From positions 1,054,001 through 1,118,000 of the forward strand of contig JAHREC010000018.1 in NCBI GenBank assembly GCA_020081605.1: 64,000 bases of DNA, read 5' to 3'. The notes below the pieces were generated by a model. The model saw nothing but the letters and a program-made list of their open reading frames with translations, did not search any database and was not told the DNA's origin. Of the stretch, positions 1,870 through 61,872 are shown one piece after another. Each line of letters begins with the position of its first letter. Position 1 is the first letter of the stretch. Source of the DNA: Albifimbria verrucaria. Its lineage: Eukaryota; Ascomycota; Sordariomycetes; Hypocreales; Stachybotryaceae. A program made the translations under genes and the position numbers.

Positions 1870-2256
1870 AAGACGGCATGGGAGGGGTTGGTTGGGCGTG
1901 TTTGTACTTAGGATACCTTTTGCTGTTTCGCAATGCGCGATGCGGAGTACGTTTTACGACTTCACGATACATTCAGTTAATAATTCACGGCTTCGCAAGC
2001 CTGTTCATACTACAAGCCAGCAGTACATGCTCAAAAACGGCCCCCGCTGAGTGATTGATTTCCTTATTTACACATGCCTATGTATATGGAAAAGACTGGC
2101 TTCTATGCGCGCAAGGCGAAAAGACATAATTTCGTAAAGACGTCGCAGCCACCCTCCCGCTTTTTGTCTCACATCGTAACAGTTGAACCTTCATATACAT
2201 TGCCACACACACACACACACACACAGACGACAATCTGAGTCCAGTCCTCCCCTCCA
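1870..2256. other. Convergent intergenic spacer
   Basis: This 387-base spacer lies between the stop of the TMEM135-like gene and the stop of hmgA, so it should hold both 3' UTRs. Apart from the CA microsatellite listed separately, I see no gene in it. Confidence 0.6.
2204..2225. repeat. (CA)11 microsatellite
   Basis: An uninterrupted CA dinucleotide run of 22 bases, in the 3' flank of hmgA about 30 bases past its stop codon. Confidence 0.95.
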
Positions 2257-3758
2257 TCACACACCGTTGGTCTTCTCCGACAGCCGGTGCGAGTGGATGC
2301 GCTTCCCCTCGGGCAGCGCCCAGTGCGTCTTGACGCCGCCCCAGCTCTCCTCGCTGTAGCCCTCCTGGACCTTCTTGCAGGTGCGCAGCCCCATTCCGTG
2401 ACGCCGACCATGAGGCAGCTCTCGAACATGAAGGCGCAGCTGCCGGCGCCGACCTTGGCCGGCTGCAGCGCCGCCTCGCGCGCGCCCTCGTGGCTCTCCG
2501 CGTCCGGCCCGTGGCCGCTCATCACGTTGTGCAGGCTCGCGCCGCCGGGCACGAAGCCGCCCGACCCGCCGCGCTTGGCGTCGTAGCCCCCGCGGATCAG
2601 GCCCATGAACTCGCTCATCGTGTTGCGGTGGTACCAGGGGGTCGGAAGGTGTCCTCGCCCACGAGCCAGCGCGGCGGGAAGATGACGAAGTCGGCGACCG
2701 CGGTGCCGGGCACCGGCGACGGCGCGCTGAGCACCGTGAAGATGGACGGGTCCGGGTGGTCGTACGAGATGGTGCCGATGGTGTTGAAGCGGCCCAGGTC
2801 GTACTTGTATGGGTAGTAGTTGCCGTGCCACGCCACGACGTCGAAGGGCGTGTGCGCCTGCGTCGTGCAGAACAGCGCATTGTTGAACTTGACCGTCACG
2901 GTGTACTGCCCTTCGCCCTCAGACGCCGTCGCGCCGTAGTCCTCGCTGAAGCTGGCCACGGGGCCTGGAAGTCGCGCGCGTTGGCCAGGCCGTTGGAGCC
3001 AATCGGCCCCAGCTCGGGGAGGCTGAAGTGGCCCTGATAGAGCTCAAGAGCGTAGCCGCGGGCCGGGCCCGACGTCAGGCGCACCTGGTACTTGACGCCG
3101 CGGGGATAACGGCGATCTCCATGGGCCGCACGAGGAGCCAGCCGAACTCGGTGCGGATGTCAAGGTCACCCTCCTGCGGGACGATGAGCAGGTCACCATC
3201 GGCCGAGTAGAAAGCGGAGTGGTCATCCATGCTGGTGCCGGCCGCGTACACAAACATGCCCAGGCCCTGCTTGAGCGTGGGGTCGCCGGCGCCGGCGACG
3301 AGCTTCAGCCCGGACACGAAGTCGAGGTGCTTGGACTTGTCGTGGTCGAAGGGGTCCCACCGGAGCTGGTTGGGGATGTAGTGCAGCTTGTCGCCCGTGC
3401 TGAAGGCGGGCTCGCTATCACCGGCATGTCCGTTGGCGGCCTCGGCCTCGGCCGGAGCGGCGGGCTTGTAGGGCGGGTGGGCGCACGACGGCAGGACGCG
3501 ATAGAGCCATGTCTGCTTGTTTTCGTGTCGCGGGGCCGTGAAGGCGGTGCCGGAGAGCTTCTCGGCGTATAAGCCATATGGCGGCTTCTGGGGAGTTTTG
3601 ACCGACGGGCAGAGCACCCTCTACGGCCTCGGATCTGCATCGCCGTTAGCCTGATGATATCTCTCAATCCACGGATAGAAAACGCCGTACTCTAAATGGT
3701 TGTCGAAGCCATTCTGGTATCTGTACCTCTCCTTGGTATCAAACTGGGTGACAGGCAT
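2257..3758 (-). CDS. hmgA: Homogentisate 1,2-dioxygenase
   Basis: This iron dioxygenase opens the ring of homogentisate to maleylacetoacetate in phenylalanine/tyrosine breakdown. The start is at 3758 ([18 protein letters not shown]). One intron (3635-3690, GTACGG donor, GCTAACG branch, CAG acceptor) follows the 22nd codon. The conserved [20 protein letters not shown] block, the [10 protein letters not shown] motif (His and Glu iron ligands six residues apart) and the HGPDAE motif (second His ligand) are all present, and the total length is close to the family's roughly 450 residues. The coding frame shifts at five runs, each one base short: 3590-3593 (gggg), 3102-3105 (gggg), 2960-2963 (gggg), 2637-2641 (ggggg) and 2389-2392 (cccc). 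Since every break is of the same kind, I read this as an intact gene with sequence errors. In aspergilli hmgA is adjacent to fahA and maiA; here the neighbours are unrelated and fahA lies about 51 kb away. Confidence 0.93.
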
Positions 3759-4702
3759 GATGGGCGTGTTAGACGGCCAGCGCAATCACAGTTCAGAAGC
3801 TACCTTGTTAGAAGAACCATTGGCCAAGGTGAGGGAAGGCGCAGGAAGAGGAGCTTTCTGCTTATATAGCAGACTCCGTCTCGTACCGACCATGGTCCTC
3901 TCGCCCAAGATGACGCGCGCCTTTTGCTGGCTCTTGGGTGTGAGATTCCGCCTCATGGGATGGGGGCACTGGTTGCTTGCCGAAGAGACCGACGATACCC
4001 GCGGACGGCTTGCGGCGCTTGTTCCGCCCTCTCGTGGGTGACCCCACGGACCTGCGGGATACATGCTTATTGGGGTACCCGCGGTTTTACGTGGGAAACT
4101 GTTAGTGTGCCAACAGTTGCGGGGCGGGGCTACTTGGTATTAGTATGGAAACACAAAGGATACACAGAAGGTGTAGATCGTTCAAGTCTGACGCCGCCGT
4201 CTCGTTTGGGGACGAGTCTCGTCACACGCTGTGATTGTGACTGCGACTCACCGGGGCCACATTCCACAGAACGGGAGCTCGCATCTAGAACCACATCGTA
4301 GCCCCGGGAATGAGTGGGGTGATGCGGACCTGCCTCCACCGTGAACCGACCAAACAGGGTCCTGTATGGGTCGGCGAGCTTTTATAGGATGCAGCAGCTA
4401 ATACAGACGACGTCTGGAGTGGTTTCATTTCACAAGAGATGCAGAGGCGGAGCAGCGAGGTGAGAGAGGAATGTAAAGCTTCAGTGCACCCCAGACCATG
4501 GGGGCTACTGAGCTTTCGTCTCTTGAATTGTCCACAAAGAGTACATAGGCGCTGCCTCCAGCAAACGCAGAACCACGACCCGGCCCAGAATATCTAAGTC
4601 GCAATATAACCAGGCGCCGACTCGCAACGAACCCAGCGAGGCCAAACAAGAAAAGTTGAAGGAGCTATTGTAACATGATATTAGGGGTTTGGAGAGGGAG
4701 AT
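3759..4702. other. Upstream region of hmgA; no gene seen
   Basis: This 944-base stretch holds the hmgA promoter and the 3' flank of the next minus-strand gene. Short open frames on both strands show no family resemblance and no plausible splice structure. Confidence 0.5.
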
Positions 4703-5446
4703 TTACTCTTCCTCCTTGTTCTTGTTCTTCTTCTTCTTGCCACCGGTGCTGAAGCCTCCTGTTGATGTGGGCTGCTTCTGAAGGTGCACTACTAGGCGAG
4801 TCCACGACTCCTCCTTGTCCCACTCGAATCCTGCTAGGTATGGGTTGTCAAGTTCATCATCGGTCTGAGAGAGCTGAGTCAGTACGTGGTAGGTAGGCGA
4901 TGGTAGGTTGAGACGCGAAAGCTTACCCTCTTCTTGTATGCCTTGTAGATGGCTTCTAGCGCATCCTTGATTGTTACTCCCCGCATGTTCCGTGCCGTCA
5001 CTTCCTTACCTAACGGGAAGTGCAAGTCAATCTTCTTGACGGGAGGTGTCGTCAAATGCAGCTTCAATATGCTGGGGTCCTCAACACTGTTGGGGCTCTT
5101 GTTGATTTTCCTAGACAAGTGACATGTTAGAGCTAAGGGTGGTCTAGAGCGGGGAGCCACCGAGCAGTGTGCGGGTGACGCAACAGTAACTCACCATCCT
5201 GTTTTTGTGTCTCAATCGGCAGTTCAATTTCTGTGCCCTCCTTCTCTGTAAGGGTGTTAGTTAGATGCGCGAGGACCAAAGCAAGCCATCGGGTGAGCCT
5301 GCGTGGTGAGACGGAAACATACCGAGTTCAGCGATGTTGTACACTCCGGGAATGCTGGAGCTCTTTCTCATGTGACCCTTCTCCTGAGGAGGTGAGGATG
5401 ACAAGCCTTGTACGGCGGAGTCGACTTTGGTGAGCGGTTCAGACAT
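4703..5446 (-). CDS. Small conserved fungal protein, possible DUF6699-type
   Basis: Four exons are proposed: 5323-5446, 5195-5245, 4927-5110 and 4703-4864, with GTATGT, GTGAGT and GTAAGC donors. The product is about 170 residues: a polar N-terminus (MSEPLTKVDSAVQG), a central domain with KIDLHFPLGKEVTARNMRG followed by the helix VTIKDALEAIYKAYKKR, an FEWDKEESWTRLVVHL strand-like segment, and a Lys/Glu-rich tail ending KKKKNKNKEEE. The 'development of a small-domain helix after a hydrophobic strand' layout resembles fungal DUF6699 proteins, but that is only a family impression. The exon 2/3 junction is one base out of phase; a third G at the GG of the donor (5194-5195) would give QDGKINKSP. 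No function is known to me. Confidence 0.7.
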
Positions 5447-43903: not shown

Positions 43904-44727
43904 TTATACCTGGGAGAAATTGCTAAACTCATGCCACTTCTTGTCTGAGGCCAACAATCCTTCCGTTGCCATCACGCCAACCTTCGCAGCGTCACGTCCG
44001 ATCAAAAGACGAGCCGGTGGCTCATCATGTTTGGAGAGTCGAATGATGGCATCCGCAACCTCACTGGGCTCCGACCACATCTCTTTGCCATCGACGATCC
44101 TCTTGAAGTAGCCGGCGACCAACGGTCTGTAGTCCTCGTGGAACCCTTCCGGATGCGAGAAGCCGTCCGCCATCTCGGTTTTCATGCCACCAGGCTCCAG
44201 GGTCGTGACTTTGATGTTGAACGGCGCAAGCTCGACAGCGAGCACGCCCGAGAAGCCTCCGATGGCCCATTTCGAACTCTGGTAGGCACCAAGGCCTGGC
44301 ACGGAGTTTCTCAACCCAATGGTGTTTACTTGAATGATGCGCCCGGACTGCTGCTTGCGCATGATTGGAATGGCAGCCTTGCTCGTGTGGACGACACCGT
44401 AGAAGTTGGTGTCCAACTGCTCCTTCAGGTCCTTGATGTCCATGTGCTCAATGGCCTCACCCCACTGGTACCGGCATTGTTTACAAGCACATCGATGCGC
44501 CCGAACTTTGAGATGGCTGAATCGAAAACACGAAGCACTTGATCATTATCCGCAACGTTGAGGTCGGCGGTGAGCACTCTATCAGAGCCATACTGCTCCA
44601 CAAGGTTGCTGAGCTGCTCCGACTTTCGAGCTGTTGCCACAACAGAGTCTCCAGACTTGAGGACAGCCTCTGCTAGAGAGCGACCGAGGCCGCGGGAGCA
44701 GCCGGTGATGAACCAGACTCGAGCCAT
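43904..44727 (-). CDS. Short-chain dehydrogenase/reductase, classical type
   Basis: Single exon, about 275 residues, normal for classical SDRs. The start at 44727 (MARVWFITGCSRGLGRSLAE) puts the TGxxxGxG NAD(P)-binding motif at the N-terminus; an upstream ATG at 44739 would add MISN. The DVLVNNAGT motif, the catalytic YQSSKWA (YxxxK) with the preceding Ser in the VNTIGLRNSVPG region, and EPGGMKTEM follow in order. The layout resembles the 17-beta-hydroxysteroid dehydrogenase-like subgroup; the substrate is unknown. The loop between the NNAG motif and HMDIKDLKEQLDTNFYG holds a frame change at cccc 44460-44463, one base short. Confidence 0.9.
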
Positions 44728-47536: not shown

Positions 47537-48638
47537 TTATCCTCCCAAATTTACCTTGGCCTTGATAGCTTCAGCTATTTTCATGAATGCAGCAGCTCTC
47601 TCGCTGGAGGGCTCAGCGACGACGGTTGGCCTACCCTTCTCGCCGTCTTCTCCAATATTTGGATGTAGTGGAATGTCTCCTAAGAAATCAATGCTGTGTT
47701 CTTCACACATGCGAGTAACCCGGTCGTGTGACCCAAAAACGTGCGTCTCGCCGTTACAGTGAGGGCACTTGAAGAGGGACATGTTCTGGACCAAACCGAG
47801 AATGTTGACATCGACTGTTTTGAACATGTTGATGCCCTTGACTGCGTCTTTGGTGGCTAGCGTGTGTGGTGTAGTGACGATGACAGAGCCTACCGGACAG
47901 AGTGTATCAGCAAGGTGAATTGCAGGAAACCGAGGGCGACTAATCTTACCATCTAGTATCACTTGTTGTGTAATAGTCAGCTGTGTGTCTCCTGTTCCAG
48001 GGGGCAAGTCTAGGACGAGAACATCTAGGCCTCCCCAGTGGACTTCATGGAGAAGTTGCTGTATGGCTTTCATGACCATGGGCCCTCGCCAGACGACTGG
48101 CGCATTCTCGCCGACGAGGTAGCCCATGGACATTGTTTTAACACCATAGTTTGTTAGAGGAATCAATTGGTTCTCTGGATTCAGTTAGCAATTTATTATA
48201 GTCTGTGGCCCGCCGGAGATGGCTCACGGCTTGATAATCTGGGTTCCCTGATAGGTCAAAGAGCGTAGGAACTGATGGCCCGAAGATGTCGGTGTCAAGA
48301 ATGCCTGCGCGAAGTCCTAATCTTGCAAATGCGAGAGACAAATTGGCTAGAAGCTGTGAGAACGTGGGACCACAGACAGGAGACTTGATGCAACCAACCA
48401 GCTACGGTACTCTTGCCGACGCCGCCCTTGGCTGACGACACAGCAATGACCTTGTCAACGCCAGTGATCTTACGCCTCTGAGGACGTCTTGGCCAGTTGG
48501 GCGGAGTGCCTGACCGAGGAAGACCCTGAAGATCGTCAGTTGAAGTGAGGATAGATCAATATCTGAAGTACCAACAAGTGGATTCTCATGTAGAGCAGCT
48601 CGCGAAGCTTGGAAGAGCCGGAGTGCGGTGGAACGCAT
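47537..48638 (-). CDS. ind1: Iron-sulfur protein Ind1/NUBPL, complex I assembly factor
   Basis: Start at 48638 (MRSTALRLFQASRAALHENP), a likely mitochondrial presequence. Introns follow codon 21 (GTTGGT donor), the P-loop (GTTGGT donor, TTCTAG acceptor), the NPDYQA segment and VILDG. The deviant Walker A motif SSAKGGVGKSTVA, DTDIFGPSVPTLF, LDVLVLDLPPGTGDTQLTIT and the CxxC of NMSLFKCPHCNGETHVFG (cluster binding) identify the Mrp/Nbp35 family, and the presequence points to Ind1, which inserts Fe-S clusters into complex I. The third intron's donor region (GCC|GTGAGC near 48228) is one base out of phase; a second G would fix it. The C-terminus (AFMKIAEAIKAKVNLGG) is complete. Confidence 0.92.
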
Positions 48639-49066: not shown

Positions 49067-50816
49067 ATGGCCAAAGCAAAGGGTCGCGCGCATTTGTTCA
49101 AGGACGACGAGGAAATCGTCAAGGGTGCGTTACCATTCACTTCTTGTATGTTTTTGACCGACGCTGACTTTTCAATTAGACTATGATCCTGAGTTCAATG
49201 GCCCAGAGAAAGACCAAAGCGGAAGCGAAGTAAGCGACAATGAAGGCGCGGCAACAGAGCACTATGTCTCCGTTGGCGAAAGCAAGATGAGGCGGAAGGA
49301 GAGCCAGTCTCTCGGTCCCAAGTACCGCGGTGCGCGTGTTTCGCGAAAGGCCCTGGAGCAAGACAGCGACAACGAGGAAGATGACGACGAAGCCTCCGAC
49401 GATGAGAAGGGAGACTACGCTGATCCCGAACTCGTCAATCTCGAAGCGGACGAAGCTGAGGCCAGCGATTCCGAGATTGCTAGCGACGACGCTCTTGGAG
49501 AGTCTGACACCGAGCGCTTTAAGGACTTTGCTTTCCGAGGAAGTTCCAAGCCTGCCAAGAAGCTGAACAAGCGAGCTACCGCCGCCGACTTTATGTCTTC
49601 GTCTGATGATGATGCTGCCGGAGAAGGCGCTGAGTTGAACGACGATGAGGATTCCGAGGAGGATGATGACGACTTGGATGGCGCAGCGCTGGACGATTCG
49701 GAAGACGACGAGGACATGGACGATGGCCTTGACGATCTGCTCAACGGAGGTGCTGACTCCGAAGAGGGCTCTGCGGAAGACTCTGACGCCGATGATGATG
49801 ACGAAGAGCCTTCGGATGATGATGAAAATTCCGACGATGAAGAATCCGAAGATGATGAGAAATCTTCCAAGTCCAAGAATGCAACTGCCAAGCCAATGCT
49901 CGCGGCGCTGTCCAACCGCGCAGATATCGACAAGGGCATGGCTATCCGACAGCAGAGGCAGGTTTACGACGGACTTCTCAACTTGCGAATTCGACTGCAG
50001 AAGGCGCTCGTTGCGGCCAACACATTTACAGCCCTCGATGACAGCCCCGAGGCGGAGTCTGAGCCCTACGAAGCTGCTGAAGAGGCCGCTATCAAGCTGC
50101 TCAACACCATCAGCAGCCTTCGCGACGGCTTCGGACCGGCAGCTCGGGCCGGAGACAAGAGGAAGCGTACTCTTGAAGTCTCTATGCCAAGCGAGGAGAT
50201 TTGGCAGCAGCTGCAGGATGAGGACAGCAACCTTGTCAAGTTCCGGGAGGATAGATTGGAGAAGTGGTCAAAGAAGGTGCAATCAGTAACTGTCACGGCA
50301 GCCAAGGGACTGGGCGCAAAGAACAAGACCCTCATCAACGCTCTCCAGGATCAACTGGCAGACCCCGATAACCGTCTGGTGAAGCGCTCCCGAATCCCTC
50401 GATCATGCGCCCCAGCCCAAGCAGCCAAGAAGGTCACGGAAGACGAGAACATCTACGACGACGCCGACTTCTATCAACTCCTCCTGAAGGAGCTCGTGGA
50501 TCAGCGCACCGTGGAAACGTCTGGTGAGCAGAACAGCGCTCTGCCATCTATCATGGTCACTGCGGCGAAGGAGGCCAAGATGCGTAAGGTGGTGGATCGA
50601 AAGGCCAGCAAGGGCCGCAAGATGCGTTTCACCGTACACGAGAAGCTGCAGAACTTCATGGCGCCCGAGGACAGGCGTTCTTGGGAACAGGAGCAGATCA
50701 GCCGTTTCTTCGGAACGCTGCTTGGCCAGAAGATGGAGCTCAACGAGGAGAGCGAGGACGAGGACATGGACGAGGCTAATGCGGAAGAGGAGGGTCTTCG
50801 ACTATTTAGAAACTAA
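49067..50816 (+). CDS. BFR2: Ribosome-biogenesis factor Bfr2 (AATF/Traube family)
   Basis: Two exons, 49067-49124 and 49180-50816, with GTGCGT donor and AATTAG acceptor. Start MAKAKGRAHLFKDDEEIVKD. The first 230 residues include PKYRGARVSRKALEQDSDNE and long Asp/Glu/Ser tracts typical of nucleolar proteins. The conserved core follows: KGMAIRQQRQVYDGLLNLRI in the AATF leucine-zipper-like region, EKWSKKVQSVT, then NIYDDADFYQLLLKELVDQR, KGRKMRFTVHEKLQNFMAP and the end FFGTLLGQ. Bfr2/AATF acts in the small-subunit processome on 18S rRNA precursors. No frame break over 1.7 kb, which is the exception in this window. The stop is only 23 bases from the stop of the next gene on the other strand. Confidence 0.93.
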
Positions 50817-52827: not shown

Positions 52828-54235
52828 ATGGCGGCGCCCAACAGCTTTGGGGAGCTCGACCTCTCCATCATCGGGTTGGCGTCGCAATACCCCCGTACTC
52901 CCTCGAGCCCAATGCCGTCGACACCTTGGCCGAGAGGTTCTACCCTGATTCGCCTTCGTGAGTGTGTTTGTTCCCCTGACTCGAGGCCCGCCAAGCTCGG
53001 CGTTGCTAACCGCGGAGGCGCAGTATGAAGAAGGTTCTCTCCATTAACCGATACACCGGCATCGACAAGCGCTCGTCCATTGGCACCCCAGACCACCCTT
53101 CCGTGAACCAGGAAAAGCCCCTCAATAACGGAGCTGCACAAGGTCTTCATGAGCGATGGTGTGCCGCTTGCCGTGAGCGCCGCCCGCAAGGCCATTGCTG
53201 AGGCCGGCCTTGACCTGTCTCAGATCACACACATCGTCTCCACAACCTGCACCAACAGCGCCAACCCCGGTTTCGACCACTTCGTCGCAAAGGGCCTTGG
53301 CATCACTCATCAGGTGGAAAAGGTGCTGCTGCACGGTGTCGGCTGCAGTGGTGGCCTGGCCGCTCTGCGGACAGGCGCGAACCTAGCGCTTGGTCACAAA
53401 TTCCGAGGAAAGCCTGCGAGGGTATTGTGTGTTGCGCTCGAAGTCAGCACGACCATGGTCAGGAGCGAGTTGGACAGCATCAACGAGCTACAGGAGACGA
53501 GGATAGGCGCGTGCTTGTTTTCCGATTGCGCAAGCGCTGCGGTGCTGAGCAACGGCATCGGGGAGCCTGCCGAACCGATCTACGAGCTGCTGGGCTGGGA
53601 CCACAGAATAATTCCCGATACCGAAGATGATCTTGGTTTCGACGTAGATCCTGTTGGTAAGGATAAAGCGTTCTCGTGTTGGATTTTCGCTAATTGTTTG
53701 GCTCAGGCTGGAAAGTTGTTCTCACACCGCGGGTCCCTAAGCTTGCCGGGGATCGATATTACCAACCTTCCAAGACCTGATGGCATCTCTGTCGTTACCA
53801 TCCGAATACCAGAAGCCCAGCGATTTCGATTGGTGTATGCACCCAGGAGGCGCAACCATCTTGACCGGGGCGGAGCGCGCTCTCAACATTAGCCCCGAGC
53901 ACATGCGCGCAAGCTACGACACATACATCAACCACGGCAACTCAAGTTCCGCAACTATCTTCAGTGTCATGGATCGCATGCGCTCCAAGGAAATGGATGC
54001 CATGGCGCCCGAGGGTCGTGTCCGCGAGTACATTGTAGGTTGCGCGTTCGGCCCCGGCATCTCCGTCGAGATGAACATGCTACGGCGGAACCTCGAGTAC
54101 GGCAGCCGCATCAACGGATTGCAGACGCCGCCCGAGACGGAGAGCGAAGCTAGCGACGACGTACCGGAGAGGAGTTCGGGGAACAGCGACGAGGGCTTCA
54201 TTGCAGAAGCGTTGGAGAATCTAGATGTGGATTAG
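52828..54235 (+). CDS. Type III polyketide synthase (chalcone synthase-like)
   Basis: Three exons: 52828-52957, 53024-53656 and 53707-54235 (GTGAGT and GTAAGG donors). Start MAAPNSFGELDLSIIGLASQ. The catalytic triad is visible: Cys in VLLHGVGCSGGLAALRTG, His in DWCMHPGGATI, Asn in YINHGNSSSATIFSV. The GPGISVEMNML motif near the C-terminus is the family's GFGPG-like loop. Length, about 430 residues, suits fungal type III enzymes, which condense fatty-acyl starters with malonyl-CoA to alkylresorcinols or alkylpyrones. The tail after 395 residues is acidic and disordered. Frame changes: ccccc 52890-52894, about 53112-53127 (two bases needed, one each in the A4 and C4 runs) and gggg 53748-53751. 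It heads a row of four same-strand genes with FAH, a Zn2Cys6 regulator and a P450. Confidence 0.9.
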
Positions 54236-54689
54236 ACAAACCATTCTCGATTACAGCATATCTGGTGTTGGCCATTGTTATTAGACCACAGACTTAGTAT
54301 TGGCGCCATGAGATTCCAGTCGTAAAACATCAATATAATTAAGCGACGAACATAACATACCGTCATAACGGTTCTAGATGCGAGAATGCAAATGCTTGTT
54401 CACGTGAGGAATCACCGTTGTTGGTGTTAGCGTCTCAAATGATGCAATGCGATTTCTCAATCGGGTATGGCATTCGGCCTGGTTGATTGATTCTCCCATC
54501 GGCTTGCATCGGCCGGTGTGCGGGGCAGGCGGATCATATTCCGTCAACCGGCCTCGGGCGGGATTAGAGCTCGGTACCACCTCCACAGTGGAAGCTGCTA
54601 CAGTTAAAGAGATACAGGGCATGGCTCCAATTTCTTTGCAAATTACGCTTACATAGCTTTCCCCGGCCATCAAGGCACACGCAGCAAGC
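54236..54689. other. Spacer between PKS and fahA
   Basis: About 450 bases: 3' UTR of the PKS gene and promoter of fahA. No gene is seen. Confidence 0.5.
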
Positions 54690-56080
54690 ATGGAGTTGAG
54701 CGCGTCTGCAAAGTCATGGGTGCCGGCCGATGAGCGCGGCGACTTCTCGATTCACAACCTGCCCTTGGGCGTCTTCTCAATCACGTCCAGCGATGGCGCA
54801 GGACACGGTCCCCGCGTGGGCGTGCGCATTGGGGACTTGGTCCTTGACATGAAGGCTTTTACCGAACACCTGGCTGCTGGGACTTTGCCAGACACTGAGG
54901 CTTGTGCAGAGTGCTTTGGGCACCCAACTCTCAATGCGTTTGCCGCTAAGGGTCGCGGCGTACATAGGGCTGTGAGACGTGACCTGCAGCGCGTCTTGGT
55001 GGAGGGGACGGAGCTACCTGACGTCCTCCAGAAGAACAATGCCCTGAGGGAAAAGGTGCTGCTGCCGTTGAGCGCCGTCAAGATGCACCTCCCCATGCAT
55101 ATCGGTGACTACACGGACTTCTACGTGGGCTATCACCACGCGTACAAGGTCGGGGAGCTCTTTCGCGGACCTGAGAACGCCTTGCAACCGAACTACACTC
55201 ATCTGCCAGTTGGCTACCATGGCCGCGCCTCGAGCATTGTCGTGTCCGGAACCCTGATCCGACGACCGTGGGGACAGTTCCTGGAAAACCCTACGGCCAC
55301 GCCAAAGCAGCCAATTACGGCCCCCAGTCGCAGGCTGGATTACGAGCTCGAGCTGGGATGCTTCATCTGCAAGCCCAACGAGATGGGATCCCCATCGACG
55401 TCAACAGCGCCGATGAGCACATTTTCGGTTACGTACTTCTGAACGATTGGAGCGCCTGAGACATCCAGGCATGGGAGTACGTCCCGCTTGGCCCGTTCAA
55501 TGGCAAGAACTTCGGGTCAACCATCAGCGCGTGGGTGGTGATGGCGGATGCGCTGGAGCCGTTCCGGACAGAGCCCTTGGCGAACAAGACGACGGTGCAG
55601 GACTACATGAAGGAAAACGAGAAAAGGAGCGTCTTCGACATCAAATGCGAAGTCAGCCTGACAGGTAAGTGAAACCCCCACCAGCGGAGTCGCAAGAGAC
55701 GCAGAGCCGTTGCGCTAACACGGATTTGTCTCATCGGCTGAAGACAACGGCCACACCTCCACGTTGGGCAAAACCTCGTCGCAGAATCTGCTTTGGTCGT
55801 TCCCGCAGATGATCGCCCATCACACACTTGGTGGCTGCCCTCTTCAGACAGGGGACCTGCTTGGCTCCGGCACTATCAGCGGGGCGGCGTCGAGTGAGCG
55901 CGGCAGTTTGCTCGAGATGACGGAGGGAGGCAAGCAGGACGTCCAGCTGGAGAACGGACAGGTGAGGCGTTTCCTGCAGGATGGCGACATACTCGCGCTG
56001 GGGGATACTGCGAGAGGGAGGGACGCAGGATAGGATTTGGGGTTTGCGAAGGCAAGGTTGTGAGCGCGATCTCGCGATGA
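54690..56080 (+). CDS. fahA: Fumarylacetoacetase
   Basis: Two exons, 54690-55664 and 55744-56080 (GTAAGT donor, TGAAG acceptor). The enzyme hydrolyses fumarylacetoacetate to fumarate and acetoacetate, the last step of tyrosine breakdown. Conserved blocks: HIGDYTDFYVGYHHAYKVG (metal Asp and catalytic His), LDYELELGCFI (the two metal Glu), VLLNDWSA-x-DIQAWEYVPL with the metal Asp, GPFNGKNFGSTIS with the catalytic Lys, QNLLWSFPQMIAHHTLGGCP and the end GFGVCEGKVVSAISR. Two frame changes need one base each (ggg 55385-55387, ggggg 56000-56004). Separately, the codon for the invariant Arg after NDWSA is TGA (55457-55459) instead of CGA, an in-frame stop. If real it would cut the protein before its active-site Lys. 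Position next to a type III PKS and a regulator is discussed in the findings. Confidence 0.92.
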
Positions 56081-56951
56081 CTTTAGCTCGTGGCGTTCAG
56101 CGCTGGTTCCTAGATAAGGCAGACTATGACATCTTGCAGGCAGGGCACGTCAAGCATTGTCCCGTAATAGAAATTCGGTTATGCAGCAAAGCATTTTGCC
56201 CACGTTCAGCCCACGTTTCCTCATGGAGATTCGTCGCTTATCACCGGAATGCAGGATCCACGCGCAGGGCTTGGCTACGGTAGAGGAGCTGTACTGTAGA
56301 GGAGCTGTAGAAGAGGCGCCCTCCTGCCGGGCGAGGAGCTGTAGGTCCTGCGCCCGACTGCGACAAGCAACGTCCGAGCGCAGGGATTCGCGTGGTGATG
56401 TTGCAGCAGAGCTTCAGCTGCGACGGCCAACGGCCGATTGTGACGCGGGCCGCCTGTCGCATGTAGTAAGCATCTGGCCGGACCCCGGCGACATCGCGCC
56501 AATCCGGTTCAGCCAGGGCATCATGAATCTAGGTGGCCTGCAGTTTCAGGGCACGGCGGCGCACCAGTGGCGATGGCCATGTGGCTCGGGAGGGAGCGGT
56601 GCGGCGGCGGGAAATCGAGTTCAGATGAACCCCAGGGTTGCATTCCCGAGTGCAAGAGGAAAGACGTGAGGCGGACGAGGCACGGTAGATGTAGGGACGG
56701 GCCACGTTAACCCCGGCCGTGCGTGCGTCAATCAGGATAACGTCTTTGATGGACGGGCCTGAAGGGAGAGGGAGAGGAGACGAGGCACTACCGGGGAGGG
56801 AAACGACTAAGGCGTGCTGGGCAGTCACGTGGGCGATCTCCTCCGCGAAACTGGAAGCCAACTTGTCTGTCAGTCGAGCTGAATCAGAACATCTGTTTCG
56901 ACAATTGCTTTCCTTCACGTCCGTCGCAAAGTCCTCGATGGACGTCGCGCC
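56081..56951. other. Upstream region of the Zn2Cys6 regulator
   Basis: About 870 bases. A 170-codon open frame at 56157-56669 has no recognisable motif and I do not call it a gene. Promoter of the regulator is expected on the right. Confidence 0.45.
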
Positions 56952-59568
56952 ATGGAGCAGATCAACACACAGGTGAGCGACCTGCGCTATCTCGCCCAGG
57001 CTCCCGTCGCCCTGAGTGAGACTGCCAGCGCCTATGGAACACCTCGACCCCAGCCTCACGGGAGCCCGGGTTCCGCGTCTGTCGGAGACAATTCCGCGCT
57101 GCCCATGAGCGACGACGCCAGCAACAGCAACAACAAGAGAAAGTCGACCGACGATGGCACGGTTTCTGGAAAGCAGACGAGGAGCAAAAGGAATCGCGTG
57201 AGTCTGTCATTCGGCGACGTTGTCGCTGCGTAACTGCTGCCCTTTGCCCGAGGGCGCCGCTAAGCTAAACACCGAGGCTAACCACCTGAGACAGTACATC
57301 TCCATTGCATGGTAAGCCACGAATCACCGACCGAGTGTGCCTCGCGCCTACGCACTCGTTTGGTTTTTTCCCCGGAGATCTTAACCTGAGCTGACCTGTC
57401 TGATCCTAGCAATGAGTGCAAGCGACGCAAAATCAAGTGCAATGGCGAGACCCCTTGCCAACGATGTGGCAACCTCAACTTGGCATGCCTATATGCCCCC
57501 AACTGCTGTTCCAGCAACTTTAAAGATTCTGACGACTTTAAAAGGGTGACGGCTCAGCTCAACCGCCTGCAGGACGAAGTCAGCTGGCTTAACCAGACCG
57601 TCAAGAGCATGCAGACGGACCCTAACCGCCCTGCCCCTATGAGTGATCGTGCTATGACTACATCCTCATCTGTTGTCACTGCCTCCCCATCCCAAAGCAC
57701 CGCAACCATGCAGAAGCCCGAGGGTTCGCATTACAGGCACGGCTCCTTCCGGGGCCCACCAGCATGGCCTTTAGCCTCGACGTCGCAAACTCCACCATCG
57801 CCAACATGGGCTACCGCATAGTCCAAGAACCTGAGGAGCCACCGCAGCCCACAGAAGACCCTGAGAACCTGCTGCCTCCGGGCCAGTGCGATCCTCTGCT
57901 CGAGTTCGACAAGGACGAGCTTGTGCGCCTGTGTCGACTGCACGAAGACGAGGTTGGCATCATGTATCCCGTGCTGGATATACAAACAGTCATTGCCCAC
58001 GCCAAGAATCTGGTAACATACTTGGAGTCACTTGGGAATCAACGACCGAGGGAACCTATCAACGATGAGAAAACCCTGCAACTCAAGATGGTCATGTGTT
58101 GCGCACTTGTCGTCGAAGAGCATGGCCACAGCTTAAAGGCAGAGAAGATATATAGAAGTATGGAGACTGTCATCAACCGCAAGCTCATGTCGGACCCCAG
58201 CGACTTTGCCAGTCTACCACTTCTTGCCCTCTTGGCAGGCTACCGCTTCTTGTCCAACGACGAGGTTCTCTCATGGAGAGTCATTGGGCAAGTAGCGCGG
58301 CTCTGCCTTGAGCTGGGCATCAACCAGCGTACAGGCCTGATGGCGATAACAGATGACGTGGAACGGAAGAATGCTCTGAGCAGTTTCTGGACGGCGTATG
58401 TGTTGGATCGCCGGTGGGCGTTCGGTACTGGGCTGCCATATGTGGTTCAAGACTCGGATATTGATCCTCAGTTGCCATTGCCAGTGAGTAAATCTATACT
58501 AGGCCTAACCATTAATATGCAGTATACTAACACCTTATATAGGAGGAGTACCCATGGCTCGTTGCCATGGTCACATACTCTCGGTTGTGTGCCAAGGTGT
58601 GGCGACAGGTGTCCCATTTTGGCCCTGTCCTTGCTCAAGAACTCCGCCAAGAGGAAATCGAACGCCTGGACCAAGAAATTCTCCAGTGGTACGAGTCTGT
58701 TCCTGAAGAGGTCAAAGTCCGCAATTGGGACAAGGACAAGCAGATCACATCAACACCATCATATAATCTTCAGCGCCTGAGGATTTTCACGTACTTGCGA
58801 CTGAACCAAGTCAGTACCCTTGCCATACAGATTTAGTATTTCATGCACTGACCGCGATAGATACGTATATGGCTATATACACCATTTTTGCATAGTGCGA
58901 CCAGTATCATGTCAAATCCCATGCAAGCCCAGCGTGTGGTGGATCTTGCCAAAGATACGATCCAGTATCTCAGCAACCTCAACAACACAACGAATCTGTA
59001 CCGCCGACTGCAGATATTCTACCATCAATTCCTCACATCAGCTATATCTGCCGTCTTCCTTGCCTCTGTACATGCTCCGGTTCGGTTCAGCGCCGTGTGC
59101 CGCGAGGAATTTTATTTGGCTCTCGATCTAGTCAAAGATCTCTCGGCCAAAAGCTGGGTGTCGAAGCGCTTGTGGCGCACCATCAAATCGTTGAAAGACG
59201 TTGCACCACGTTTCGGCCTCGATCCGGATGATGATGCCCATTCGACGGCTGCACTTGGCATGATTGGCCTTGCTAGGGGTCATGTCAATACGGCGGCGCC
59301 AAGCCAGCCCACCTTTCCCCGGCCTCCGCTTATCCCCACCGACAGTTTTCAACTTCCCGACGGACCAGTTGACAAGAACGGTGTCAAGATCCAGAGCGAA
59401 ATGTCCAAAATTTTCGAAGGCTACGTGGGGTTGAATGGCTTCAACAACTATACAGGACCGGAAACGCCGGTTGCACATCCCGGTGCCGAGATGACGTCGC
59501 CTACCTCGACCGATGTCTACGGCAACCCCAATGGGACCGTATTTTCACATCTTCGGGAGATGTTTTGA
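56952..59568 (+). CDS. Zn2Cys6 transcription factor with fungal regulatory domain
   Basis: Five exons: 56952-57197, 57295-57311 (17 nt), 57410-58483, 58543-58809 and 58861-59568. An intron splits the first Cys codon of the zinc cluster; the joined motif reads ACNECKRRKIKCNGETPCQR, then CGNLNLAC, the canonical Cx2Cx6C...Cx2Cx6C type. A linker coiled coil follows (FKRVTAQLNRLQDEVSWLNQ). The middle homology region is complete: LHEDEVGIMYPVLDIQTVIA, SLPLLALLAGYRFLSNDEVL, GQVARLCLELGINQRTGLM, then SSFWTAYVLDRRWAFGTGLP. A single frame change at gggg 57751-57754 joins SFRG to PTSMAFSLD. The gene sits between fahA and the P450 in the same orientation. It may control the PKS/P450 genes or tyrosine breakdown, as HmgR does in Aspergillus; the sequence does not decide. 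Confidence 0.92.
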
Positions 59569-60285
59569 GGTTAGTGATGGTAGGGAGAAAATGTTCATAT
59601 GTATATTTGAAAGACGATATTGATATGGCCTACTATGGCCCAGACGCACATGGTGTGCGACGCTTTGACGAAGTTGAGTATGGGGTTACGTTCAGTCTAT
59701 TTTAATATCCTGTATCATGACGGCAATGAGGCATATTGCATTTGCGAATGATTTTAAGGCAGCTCATACATAGCCGAAATGATATAGCGAACGACTACAG
59801 ATTTTGAGCATAAGGATATGGGTATGGAAGATGTGACGTTGGATTACATTGCAGATAGTCATAATAGACGGTACAAATCGATATAAGAAATGCTACTGTG
59901 CTTTGGTATATTCTAGCTAAGAAACGTCTGATGTCAAAGCAGCATGGTATTAAACTATTGTTTGATGAAGGTTTGCCGTGTGTTTTATAATCTGGATCAA
60001 GCGAGGCTGGGTAGTTTGGACCCCACTCTGCACAGGCGTCACAGGCGTTGAATCATGATTCGGTTTCCGTGTTTCCACTTACGATCGTGCCTTCACACAA
60101 GACAAACGTCAACGAGTGCGGTTGATTGATTGGGTTTCTTGTGCGTGCTATTGAGGTTCAATTGTTTTGGTGCAGTTCAGTGAATTCACCGATTGGCTCT
60201 GAGCAAGACGGCACGGCATAAGGCGTGAACGGACAGATTGGCGACAATTACACCGCCGCCTTATTTATGTCTTGGACTGATCAAA
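59569..60285. other. Spacer between regulator and P450
   Basis: About 720 AT-rich bases: 3' UTR of the regulator and promoter of the P450. No gene is seen. Confidence 0.5.
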
Positions 60286-61872
60286 ATGGGGGCTTTTGAA
60301 CTTGACCTCAAGACTGTCATTTGGGCGACTGTTACTTTGGCTGTTGTCTTATATGCCCTGTCTCCGGGCTCAAAGATTACTCGAGGCGGACAACCTCTGA
60401 GGTGAGTGTTACCTTCCTGGACATGAGCGATTGAATCAAATTAAGACTCGTCATAGGAAACCACCAAACACTCTGCCACTTGTTGGTAATGGCATATTGT
60501 TCCTGCAAGCCCGTCAGAAGCTCTTCTCATGGTTCGCTCAGTGTGAGCGCCGGTTCGGTTACGAGACGCTGCACATCTCCGTGCCGTCTCTGCCTCCGGG
60601 CGTCATCATCAGCGACCCGCGCAACCTCGACTTTGTCTTTAAGAACGAGGAGTCTTTGGGAAAGGCGAATTCTTCAAGCGTCGGTCGTGGGACCTCTTCG
60701 GCCATGGTATCATCAACGTCGACGGCCCGCCGTGGCGCGCCCAACGGAAGGCTGGACTGCACTTCCTCAACACGCCGAACCTTCGCGTTCTTACGGAGAC
60801 GGCGCTGCCGAAGTTCTTGGGCGAAGCGGTGGCCTTTTGGAGGATCTTGCAGATGGAAGGACGGTGGTGGATCTGCAGGCTGTGGTGCATGAGGTTACGA
60901 CGCAGTTAATGGGGAAGATGGCATATAACATGGAGATGCACGCAGACGATGACTTTACCGTTGCGTTCGAATACGCATCGGGGGCTACGGCGGAGCGCTT
61001 CCAGAATCCGCTCTGGTTCCTCACCGAGTTCGTGACGGGCGCTCGATTCCGCAAGTCTGTCTCCATTGTCAAGTCTTATGGCCAGCGCATTGTCGCCAGC
61101 GCCGTCGCTGACCGCAACGGCAGCAAGAGTGATGCCCCGGACAAGCTTGACGATATATCTGGAAGTCTCATCCAGTCACTTCTCGACTCAATTGGTGATG
61201 AGCAACTCGTTGCCGATGCGGCACTGAACTATCTCTCCGCCGGGAGGGATACCGTTGCGCAGGCATTGACATGGACGTTCTATCTTTTGATTAAGCACCG
61301 CTTCGTTACAGGCAAACTACGCAAATCTTTACAAGATGATTCAGAAGAAGATAGCGGCCAAACTGACCTAACCCCGAACACCTCACTCCGTCAAAGCAAC
61401 ACTACGCCATGGCCGTCTTCTACGAGTCCCTCCGTCTCTACCCACCCATTCCCTTCGAGATCAAGCAAGCCCAGCAGGCCACCACCCTCCCTGACGGCAC
61501 CGCGCTCCCCAAAGACTCCATCGTCGTGTGGTGCCCTGGGCCATGAACCGCTCCACGACAACCTGGGGCGCCGATGCCGACCATTTCCGCCCGGAACGGT
61601 GGCTTGTGGATGGACAGCTTGTCGCCCGTGGGGCGGCTGAGTTCCCGGTCTTCAATGGTGGCCCACGGCTATGCCTAGGCAAGCGCATGGCCGAGCTGAT
61701 TGCGCTGCAGGTTGTGGCCACATTCGTAGCCACGTTTGATTTCATGCCGGCGTATGATGGGGAGAGTGAGCAAGAGCAGTTTGACACTGCCGATGGAGGG
61801 AGGGCTGCCGGTGTATGTGAGGAAGCGGTCCAGTGCATAATACGAACTTTTGAACAACTGCGATTAAGTTAA
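60286..61872 (+). CDS. Cytochrome P450 monooxygenase
   Basis: Two exons, 60286-60401 and 60457-61872 (GTGAGT donor, CATAG acceptor). The N-terminus (MGAFELDLKTVIWATVTLAV) holds a membrane anchor, so it should sit in the ER. P450 motifs in order: PLVGNGILFL, the helix C region PPWRAQRKAGLHFLN (WRxxR-like), the I-helix AGRDT, the K-helix YESLRLYPP (ExxR), FRPERW, and the heme loop FNGGPRLCLGKRMA with the axial Cys. These forms resemble the CYP52-like/CYP fatty-acid or alkane hydroxylase clan, which would suit an alkyl chain made by a type III PKS (inference). Frame changes at aaa 60661-60663, tttt 60835-60838, cccc 61372-61375 and ccc 61534-61536 each need one base. The stop is 18 bases from the stop of BUD22 on the other strand. 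Confidence 0.92.

What the first reader, a model, noticed from the sequence alone, without database searches (positions are those of the whole stretch)
52828..61872. Type III PKS, fumarylacetoacetase, Zn2Cys6 regulator and P450 in a row: candidate small biosynthetic cluster
Four genes on the same strand within 9 kb encode a type III polyketide synthase (Cys/His/Asn triad seen), an FAH-family C-C hydrolase, a Zn2Cys6 regulator and a P450 with CYP52-like heme-loop wording. A core enzyme, a tailoring oxidase and a pathway regulator are what a specialised-metabolism locus needs. The FAH enzyme is unexpected: it could be the ordinary tyrosine-catabolism enzyme trapped in the cluster, or it could act on a beta-diketone made by the PKS, since FAH-family enzymes cleave such bonds. 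The flanking BFR2 and BUD22 genes set clear housekeeping borders.
Basis: partly seen in the sequence, partly recalled or inferred. Interest (0 to 1): 0.75.

Follow-up and report, generated by a model that had tools for sequence, protein, structure and literature searches.

The report
Known-type resorcinol gene cluster, bystander hydrolase
A fungal chromosome carries a small, already described kind of gene group that probably makes a lipid-like phenol (a type III polyketide synthase with a P450 and a regulator), and the odd hydrolase lying among them is most likely an ordinary amino-acid-breakdown enzyme rather than part of the group.

Summary
The four genes exist in the stated order on one strand: an ORAS-type type III PKS (52828-54235), a fumarylacetoacetase (54690-~56077), a Zn2Cys6 regulator (~56952-59568) and a P450 (60286-61840), between BFR2 and BUD22. 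PKS and P450 are linked in relatives: neighbouring gene numbers in Fusarium lateritium, two steps apart in Cosmosporella, one 39.8-kb contig in a near-identical relative; the same contig in 8 of 12 comparable named strains. P450 and transcription factor beside clade-1 type III PKSs are published, as is PKS-III beside BFR2 in Verticillium. The FAH is a canonical fumarylacetoacetase in a clade with Trichoderma, Cordyceps, Beauveria and Stachybotrys copies. Locus numbers leave no room for it between PKS and P450 in F. lateritium. The only homogentisate dioxygenase found lies 52 kb away in the same window; a second FAH sits beside a maleylacetoacetate isomerase. I read the FAH as a bystander, though which FAH serves tyrosine breakdown is unsettled. 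As assembled, PKS, FAH, P450, BUD22 and (by eye) the regulator are frame-broken; near-identical open relatives and broken chaperone genes in the same assembly point to indel errors, not decay. New member of a known kind; low interest.

The parts
52828..54235 (+). Type III polyketide synthase (ORAS-type); introns about 52956-53024 and 53656-53708
   Evidence: Chal_sti_synt_N and _C; best solved relative Neurospora ORAS entries 3euo/3e1h, 292 bits (that these are ORAS is recalled); gene model against P0007; catalytic contexts
54690..56077 (+). Fumarylacetoacetase (FAH), canonical family; one intron about 55664-55745; read as a bystander
   Evidence: FAA_hydrolase_N and FAA_hydrolase; relative P0121 passes TIGR01266; tree; gene model
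56952..59568 (+). Zn2Cys6 transcription factor with Fungal_trans domain, several introns; boundaries read by eye
   Evidence: Zn_clus and Fungal_trans; sequence reading
60286..61840 (+). Cytochrome P450, likely tailoring oxidase; intron about 60400-60457
   Evidence: p450; relative P0241 open over 421 aa with 412 of 416 aligned residues identical; some orthologues named CYP94A1/86B1 by their sources
49158..50816 (+). BFR2/AATF, left border; also in the PKS-III locus of Verticillium
   Evidence: TRAUB and AATF-Che1; PMC9495618
61894..63447 (-). BUD22, right border; itself in three frame pieces as assembled
   Evidence: BUD22 domain in three pieces
47540..48184 (-). NUBPL-type Fe-S P-loop NTPase, probable counterpart of the 'iron-sulphur protein' at the Verticillium PKS-III locus
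   Evidence: ParA/NUBPL 219 bits
46274..46816 (+). Tudor-domain protein, probable spf30 counterpart (identification inferred)
   Evidence: Tudor_3
43907..44542 (-). Short-chain dehydrogenase (possible syntenic counterpart)
   Evidence: adh_short
2172..2918 (-). Homogentisate 1,2-dioxygenase, C-terminal part; the only match found in the genome
   Evidence: HgmA_C

Best explanation
This is a hypocrealean copy of a known Sordariomycete locus. An ORAS-like type III PKS loads a fatty acyl-CoA, extends it with malonyl-CoA and closes it to an alkylresorcinol or resorcylic acid. A neighbouring P450 oxidises the product, probably on the alkyl chain. The Zn2Cys6 factor probably controls the pair. The FAH between PKS and TF is an ordinary fumarylacetoacetase (last step of tyrosine breakdown) of the hypocrealean FAH lineage and is a bystander. 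Shown here: gene identities, PKS-P450 linkage in relatives, family-level agreement with a published PKS-III/BFR2 block, FAH family and clade. Inferred: substrate, product, the P450's target, the regulator's targets, and that the FAH plays no part.
For: Domains. ORAS entries are the closest solved relatives, 292 bits against 153 for CsyB. The PKS falls in a hypocrealean clade, 97/86. Published: P450 and TF frequent next to clade-1 PKS; PKS-III in one locus with BFR2, spf30, Fe-S protein and SDR in Verticillium. FAH: P0121 scores 394 bits on TIGR01266 (cut-off 375.3) over exon 1; hypocrealean clade 99/99; HGD in the same window.
Against: Four same-strand genes between housekeeping borders, FAH included, look like one unit. 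Relatives of the FAH at 98% and 84% are open through exon 1 (P0121, P0122), so it is kept. PKS and FAH share a contig in 4 of 8 comparable strains, 14 gene numbers apart in Parahypoxylon, so their nearness may be old. A second FAH beside a maleylacetoacetate isomerase could serve tyrosine breakdown and free the window copy. No Fusarium or other Nectriaceae FAH is among the named rows of the 120 listed, so the 'ordinary hypocrealean FAH' reading rests on three families. PKS and P450 were on different contigs in 4 of the 12 strains and 136 gene numbers apart in one of the 8 (Neoarthrinium); a shared multi-megabase contig is linkage, not adjacency. A 2025 survey says Sordariomycete type III PKS genes often lack nearby tailoring genes, and Hypoxylaceae copies are called unclustered. 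No shared promoter motif above chance. Of the 13 items in the Verticillium locus list, 7 were not identified here.
Confidence: 0.7

Rival explanations
1. The FAH is a recruited cluster enzyme that hydrolyses a C-C bond of a linear or ring-opened product of the PKS/P450 (for example an acyl beta-diketone).
For: Same strand and position inside the group; FAA_hydrolase_N at 4 places, so one copy could be spare; relatives at 98% and 84% open through exon 1.
Against: TIGR01266 match in the close relative; hypocrealean clade; no room for FAH between PKS and P450 in F. lateritium; characterised ORAS-type enzymes give resorcylic acids (PMC6985275).
Confidence: 0.08
2. A variant of the best explanation, compatible with it: the FAH belongs to an old neighbourhood of tyrosine-degradation genes on this contig (HGD 52 kb away, MaiA + another FAH about 0.40 Mb away) in which the PKS locus is embedded; its nearness to the PKS is ancestral synteny without shared function.
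For: HGD in the window; FAH + MaiA at C15:711-713 kb; PKS and FAH on one contig in 4 of 8 strains, 14 gene numbers apart in Parahypoxylon.
Against: 52 kb and many genes separate HGD from FAH; the 4HPPD matches lie on two other contigs; Greene et al. report tyrosine-degradation clusters in Dothideo- and Eurotiomycetes only (PMC3914699); FAH is not in the Verticillium locus list.
Confidence: 0.35
3. The locus is a decayed, non-functional cluster (pseudogenes).
For: 10 frame changes and one stop in PKS, FAH and P450 over ~4.1 kb of coding DNA, denser than the 0.46 per kb found in control genes (a lower bound).
Against: P450: 412 of 416 aligned residues identical to an open relative, yet 5 frame changes; FAH exon 1: 321 of 326 identical. 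HSP70, TCP1 and HGD matches of the same assembly show 12 intron-free frame changes in 26.2 kb, 10 of 12 with one base fewer than the profile needs. BUD22 is broken too.
Confidence: 0.06

Closest known systems
Clade-1 fungal type III PKS loci (ORAS, BPKS, CtPKS; Navarro-Munoz & Collemare 2020, PMC6985275)
   Same: ORAS-like PKS with P450 and transcription factor as close neighbours; the paper puts BPKS next to P450, enoyl reductase and TF genes
   Different: An FAH gene lies between PKS and TF here; clade membership was not tested on the authors' own tree; the paper finds no obvious cluster at ORAS itself
Verticillium/Colletotrichum PKS-III locus (PMC9495618)
   Same: PKS-III in one locus with BFR2, spf30, an iron-sulphur protein, a short-chain dehydrogenase and a fungal TF
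   Different: Neither FAH nor P450 is in the published gene list; 7 of its 13 items were not identified here; whether the TFs are orthologues was not tested
Soppiline cluster of Penicillium soppi (type III PKS + reducing PKS + P450; described in PMC6985275)
   Same: A P450 at the locus oxidises the type III PKS product there
   Different: No reducing PKS seen at this locus; a similar hybrid pair in this genome is elsewhere (L024)
Tyrosine degradation cluster of Aspergillus fumigatus (hppD-hmgX-hmgA-fahA-maiA-hmgR, PMC3914699)
   Same: Same FAH family; HGD in the same window
   Different: Genes are scattered here: HGD 52 kb away, MaiA with another FAH about 0.40 Mb away, 4HPPD matches on other contigs

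Membership tests
Fungal type III PKS, ORAS-type | Chalcone/stilbene synthase N and C domains | tested here: met
Fungal type III PKS, ORAS-type | Cys-His-Asn catalytic contexts | tested here: met
   (contexts in two frames because of a frame change in the assembly)
Fungal type III PKS, ORAS-type | ORAS as closest relative with a solved structure | tested here: met
   292 bits against 153 for CsyB
Fungal type III PKS, ORAS-type | Placement in clade 1 of the 2020 tree | not tested
   authors' sequences not at hand; own tree uses 28 hits only
Fungal type III PKS, ORAS-type | Long-chain resorcylic acid or resorcinol product | not testable with these tools
   needs enzyme assay
PKS-III + P450 + TF core cluster | P450 and TF close to the PKS | tested here: met
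   FAH intervenes between PKS and TF
PKS-III + P450 + TF core cluster | PKS-P450 linkage conserved in relatives | tested here: met
PKS-III + P450 + TF core cluster | Co-expression | not testable with these tools
   no expression data
Canonical fumarylacetoacetase | TIGR01266 equivalog score | tested here: met
   on P0121, the 98%-identical relative open through exon 1; the window's own pieces were tested on Pfam only
Canonical fumarylacetoacetase | Active-site residues of mouse FAH (residue list recalled) | tested here: inconclusive
   motifs present, but one codon that is arginine in the relative reads as a stop in this assembly
A. fumigatus-type tyrosine degradation cluster | hppD, hmgX, hmgA, fahA, maiA contiguous | tested here: not met
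   hmgX was not searched
Soppiline/scirpilin-type hybrid cluster | Reducing type I PKS beside the type III PKS | tested here: not met
   no ketosynthase in the 14 pieces of 49-63.5 kb scanned with Pfam; a ketosynthase lies beside the type III PKS of L024 instead

The most novel reading that the evidence does not exclude
A fumarylacetoacetase paralogue has been recruited into a type III PKS cluster as a C-C hydrolase acting on a polyketide or ring-cleaved resorcinol; no such step turned up in two full-text searches (listings seen, the papers not read).
Probability: 0.06. Interest if true: 0.6.

Novelty: new member of a known kind. Interest (0 to 1): 0.2.

Why it matters
Mostly as a calibration. 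It suggests that a published synteny (PKS-III with BFR2) reaches a further hypocrealean genome, with a P450 and a regulator attached, and it shows how an odd enzyme between cluster genes can be an ordinary catabolic gene. If the FAH did act on the polyketide, it would add a new tailoring step to fungal type III PKS chemistry.

Tried and rejected
Pseudogene reading: considered because PKS, FAH, P450 and (by eye) TF are frame-broken. Rejected after comparison with near-identical open relatives and a control on HSP70, TCP1-family and HGD matches of the same assembly. Against this: the break density in PKS + FAH + P450 (10 in ~4.1 kb) is higher than in the controls (12 in 26.2 kb, a lower bound), and the one in-frame stop in FAH is not an indel, so a true strain-level defect of FAH is not excluded.

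Shared regulator motif: CGG pairs at 13 spacings in three arrangements, and shared 8- to 11-mers, in the four upstream regions gave nothing beyond shuffles (mononucleotide shuffles only; TF start by eye).

Placing the maiA-linked FAH (L020): the tree did not resolve it, because the reference rows were hits of the window copy. Its best identity was 67% to Cercospora beticola. That tree used 43 of the 120 listed FAH hits plus four own-genome rows, N-terminal part only. The PKS tree used 28 of 120 listed hits plus three own rows. FAH rows L021 and L022 and PKS rows L023 and L024 are long branches and say nothing reliable.

Linkage counts rest on equal 'longest contig' lengths and locus numbers read by eye from the lists, not on fetched neighbourhoods. 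PKS/P450 same contig: Cosmosporella VM-42, Fusarium lateritium ACHAPT, Dactylonectria estremocensis, Mariannaea PMI_226, Ilyonectria MPI-CAGE-AT-0026, Colletotrichum truncatum, Neoarthrinium moseri, Xylariales PMI_506; different: Neonectria ditissima, Xylariales AK1849, C. cereale, Biscogniauxia mediterranea; set aside as ambiguous: F. flagelliforme, F. nematophilum, C. tropicale. PKS/FAH same: Stachybotrys elegans, Parahypoxylon, Durotheca, Xylariales AK1849; different: Hypoxylon FL1857 and NC1633, Jackrogersella minutella, Hypomontagnella monticulosa; set aside: Monosporascus (different strains). Unnamed rows were not compared, except the close relative's contig of 39818 bases.

Not done: homologue search for the TF (the 3 protein searches went to PKS, FAH and P450), structure prediction, CYP family naming, co-expression. 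Direct synteny could not be fetched: by the tool descriptions genome contigs is prokaryotic, and metagenome scans were capped at 0.

Paper searches. Seen: PMC6985275 abstract, section 15, first part of section 16, and passages; PMC9495618 passages; PMC12559476 abstract, section 11 and passages; PMC3914699 section 6 and passages; PMC8403587 passages. All other papers: search listing only. Kaneko et al. 2019 (soppiline) was seen only as described in PMC6985275.
Full report
What is there. The window is G000:C15:1054001-1118000 of a 48.4-Mb, 41-contig assembly. They lie between BFR2/AATF and BUD22. Gene models from relatives give the PKS two introns, the FAH one and the P450 one.

Frames. As assembled, the PKS shows 3 frame changes, the FAH 2 and one in-frame stop, and the P450 5; the TF shows one apparent change by eye. 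BUD22 lies in three pieces, and the homogentisate dioxygenase in two frames that overlap by 7 bases. The P450 of a close relative (P0241) is open over 421 aa and matches 412 of 416 aligned residues. The FAH exon 1 of another (P0121) matches 321 of 326. The PKS of the first relative (P0001) matches in two pieces at 100% (32 aa) and 99.5% (213 aa). In the same assembly, HSP70, TCP1-family and HGD matches totalling 26.2 kb hold 12 frame changes without room for an intron: 10 with one base fewer than the profile needs, one with two fewer, one with one more. This is the mark of indel errors. The density in the cluster (10 in ~4.1 kb) is higher than in the control, and the stop in FAH is not an indel, so a real FAH defect in this strain stays possible.

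The PKS. Its nearest solved relatives are the Neurospora ORAS entries (3euo, 3e1h; 292 and 291 bits), ahead of CsyB (153 bits) (that these entries are ORAS is recalled). It falls in a clade of 13 hypocrealean rows (97/86). PMC6985275 says that most clade-1 PKSs, the clade of ORAS and BPKS, probably make resorcinols from long starters, and that P450 and transcription factor domains are frequent next to them. The same paper finds no obvious cluster at ORAS itself. The genome has two other type III PKS places. One (L024) lies beside a type I ketosynthase, as in soppiline-type hybrids.

Conservation of the locus. They carry neighbouring locus numbers in Fusarium lateritium and are two steps apart in Cosmosporella, but 136 apart in Neoarthrinium. 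Several of the shared contigs are megabases long, so linkage there is not adjacency. PMC9495618 lists 13 items for the conserved PKS-III locus of Verticillium. At family level six have a match here: BFR2, the PKS and a fungal TF, a Tudor protein (probable spf30), a NUBPL Fe-S NTPase and a short-chain dehydrogenase, the last three within 9 kb left of the PKS. Seven were not identified; I did not search for each. The PKS thus seems embedded in an old block. Against a universal cluster: Sordariomycete type III PKSs often lack tailoring genes (PMC12559476), and the Hypoxylaceae copies are called unclustered (PMC8403587).

The P450. Sources name some of its orthologues CYP94A1 or 86B1; that those plant families are fatty-acid hydroxylases is recalled. 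Its best solved relatives are carotenoid hydroxylases (115 and 95 bits), with P450 BM3 near 65 bits. A 48%-identical paralogue lies on C33. The CYP52 label was not tested.

The FAH. Its close relative passes the TIGR01266 fumarylacetoacetase cut-off on exon 1 alone (394 against 375.3 bits) and aligns with solved fumarylacetoacetases (1hyo, 9sqs). In a tree of 47 rows the window copy lies inside a 21-row clade (99/99) whose named members are Trichoderma, Escovopsis, Cladobotryum, Torrubiella, Cordyceps, Beauveria and Stachybotrys, as expected of the ordinary enzyme. No Nectriaceae row is among the named rows of the list. Three more places with the FAH N-terminal domain exist. The one at C15:712 kb lies beside a maleylacetoacetate isomerase and falls outside that clade, unresolved. 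The only homogentisate dioxygenase match is in this very window, 52 kb from the FAH, while the 4HPPD matches are on two other contigs. PKS and FAH hits share a contig in 4 of 8 comparable strains, 14 gene numbers apart in Parahypoxylon, so their nearness may be old without being functional. Which of the two FAHs serves tyrosine breakdown here cannot be settled.

Regulation. No shared CGG-pair or k-mer motif above shuffles was found upstream of the four genes. The regulator's role is inferred from position only.

Verdict. A known kind of small type III PKS locus with P450 and regulator, in what looks like a published syntenic block, plus a fumarylacetoacetase that is most likely a bystander.

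Noticed in passing
window 2172-2918 (-): The genome's only homogentisate dioxygenase match lies at the far end of this window, 52 kb from the FAH, and is itself frame-broken as assembled.
   Followed up: partly
L020 (G000:C15:708000-717900), 2539-5239: A second two-domain FAH sits next to a maleylacetoacetate isomerase; its best identity among the rows used was 67% to Cercospora beticola, outside the hypocrealean FAH clade. Possible ancient paralogue or transfer.
   Followed up: partly
L024 (G000:C10:473000-482900): Another type III PKS lies beside a type I ketosynthase gene, resembling soppiline/scirpilin-type hybrid clusters; a P450-like ORF seen by eye was not confirmed by Pfam.
   Followed up: partly
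L022 (G000:C16:75000-84900): FAH-like gene near an FAD monooxygenase (Pfam) and, by eye, cupin-like and CocE-like ORFs; looks like an aromatic-degradation group.
   Followed up: no
L023 (G000:C33:2722500-2732400): Third type III PKS of the genome, with a ferric-reductase gene nearby.
   Followed up: no
whole assembly G000: Intron-free frame changes are common in conserved genes (12 in 26.2 kb of HSP70/TCP1/HGD matches), so single-gene pseudogene claims from this assembly are unsafe.
   Followed up: yes
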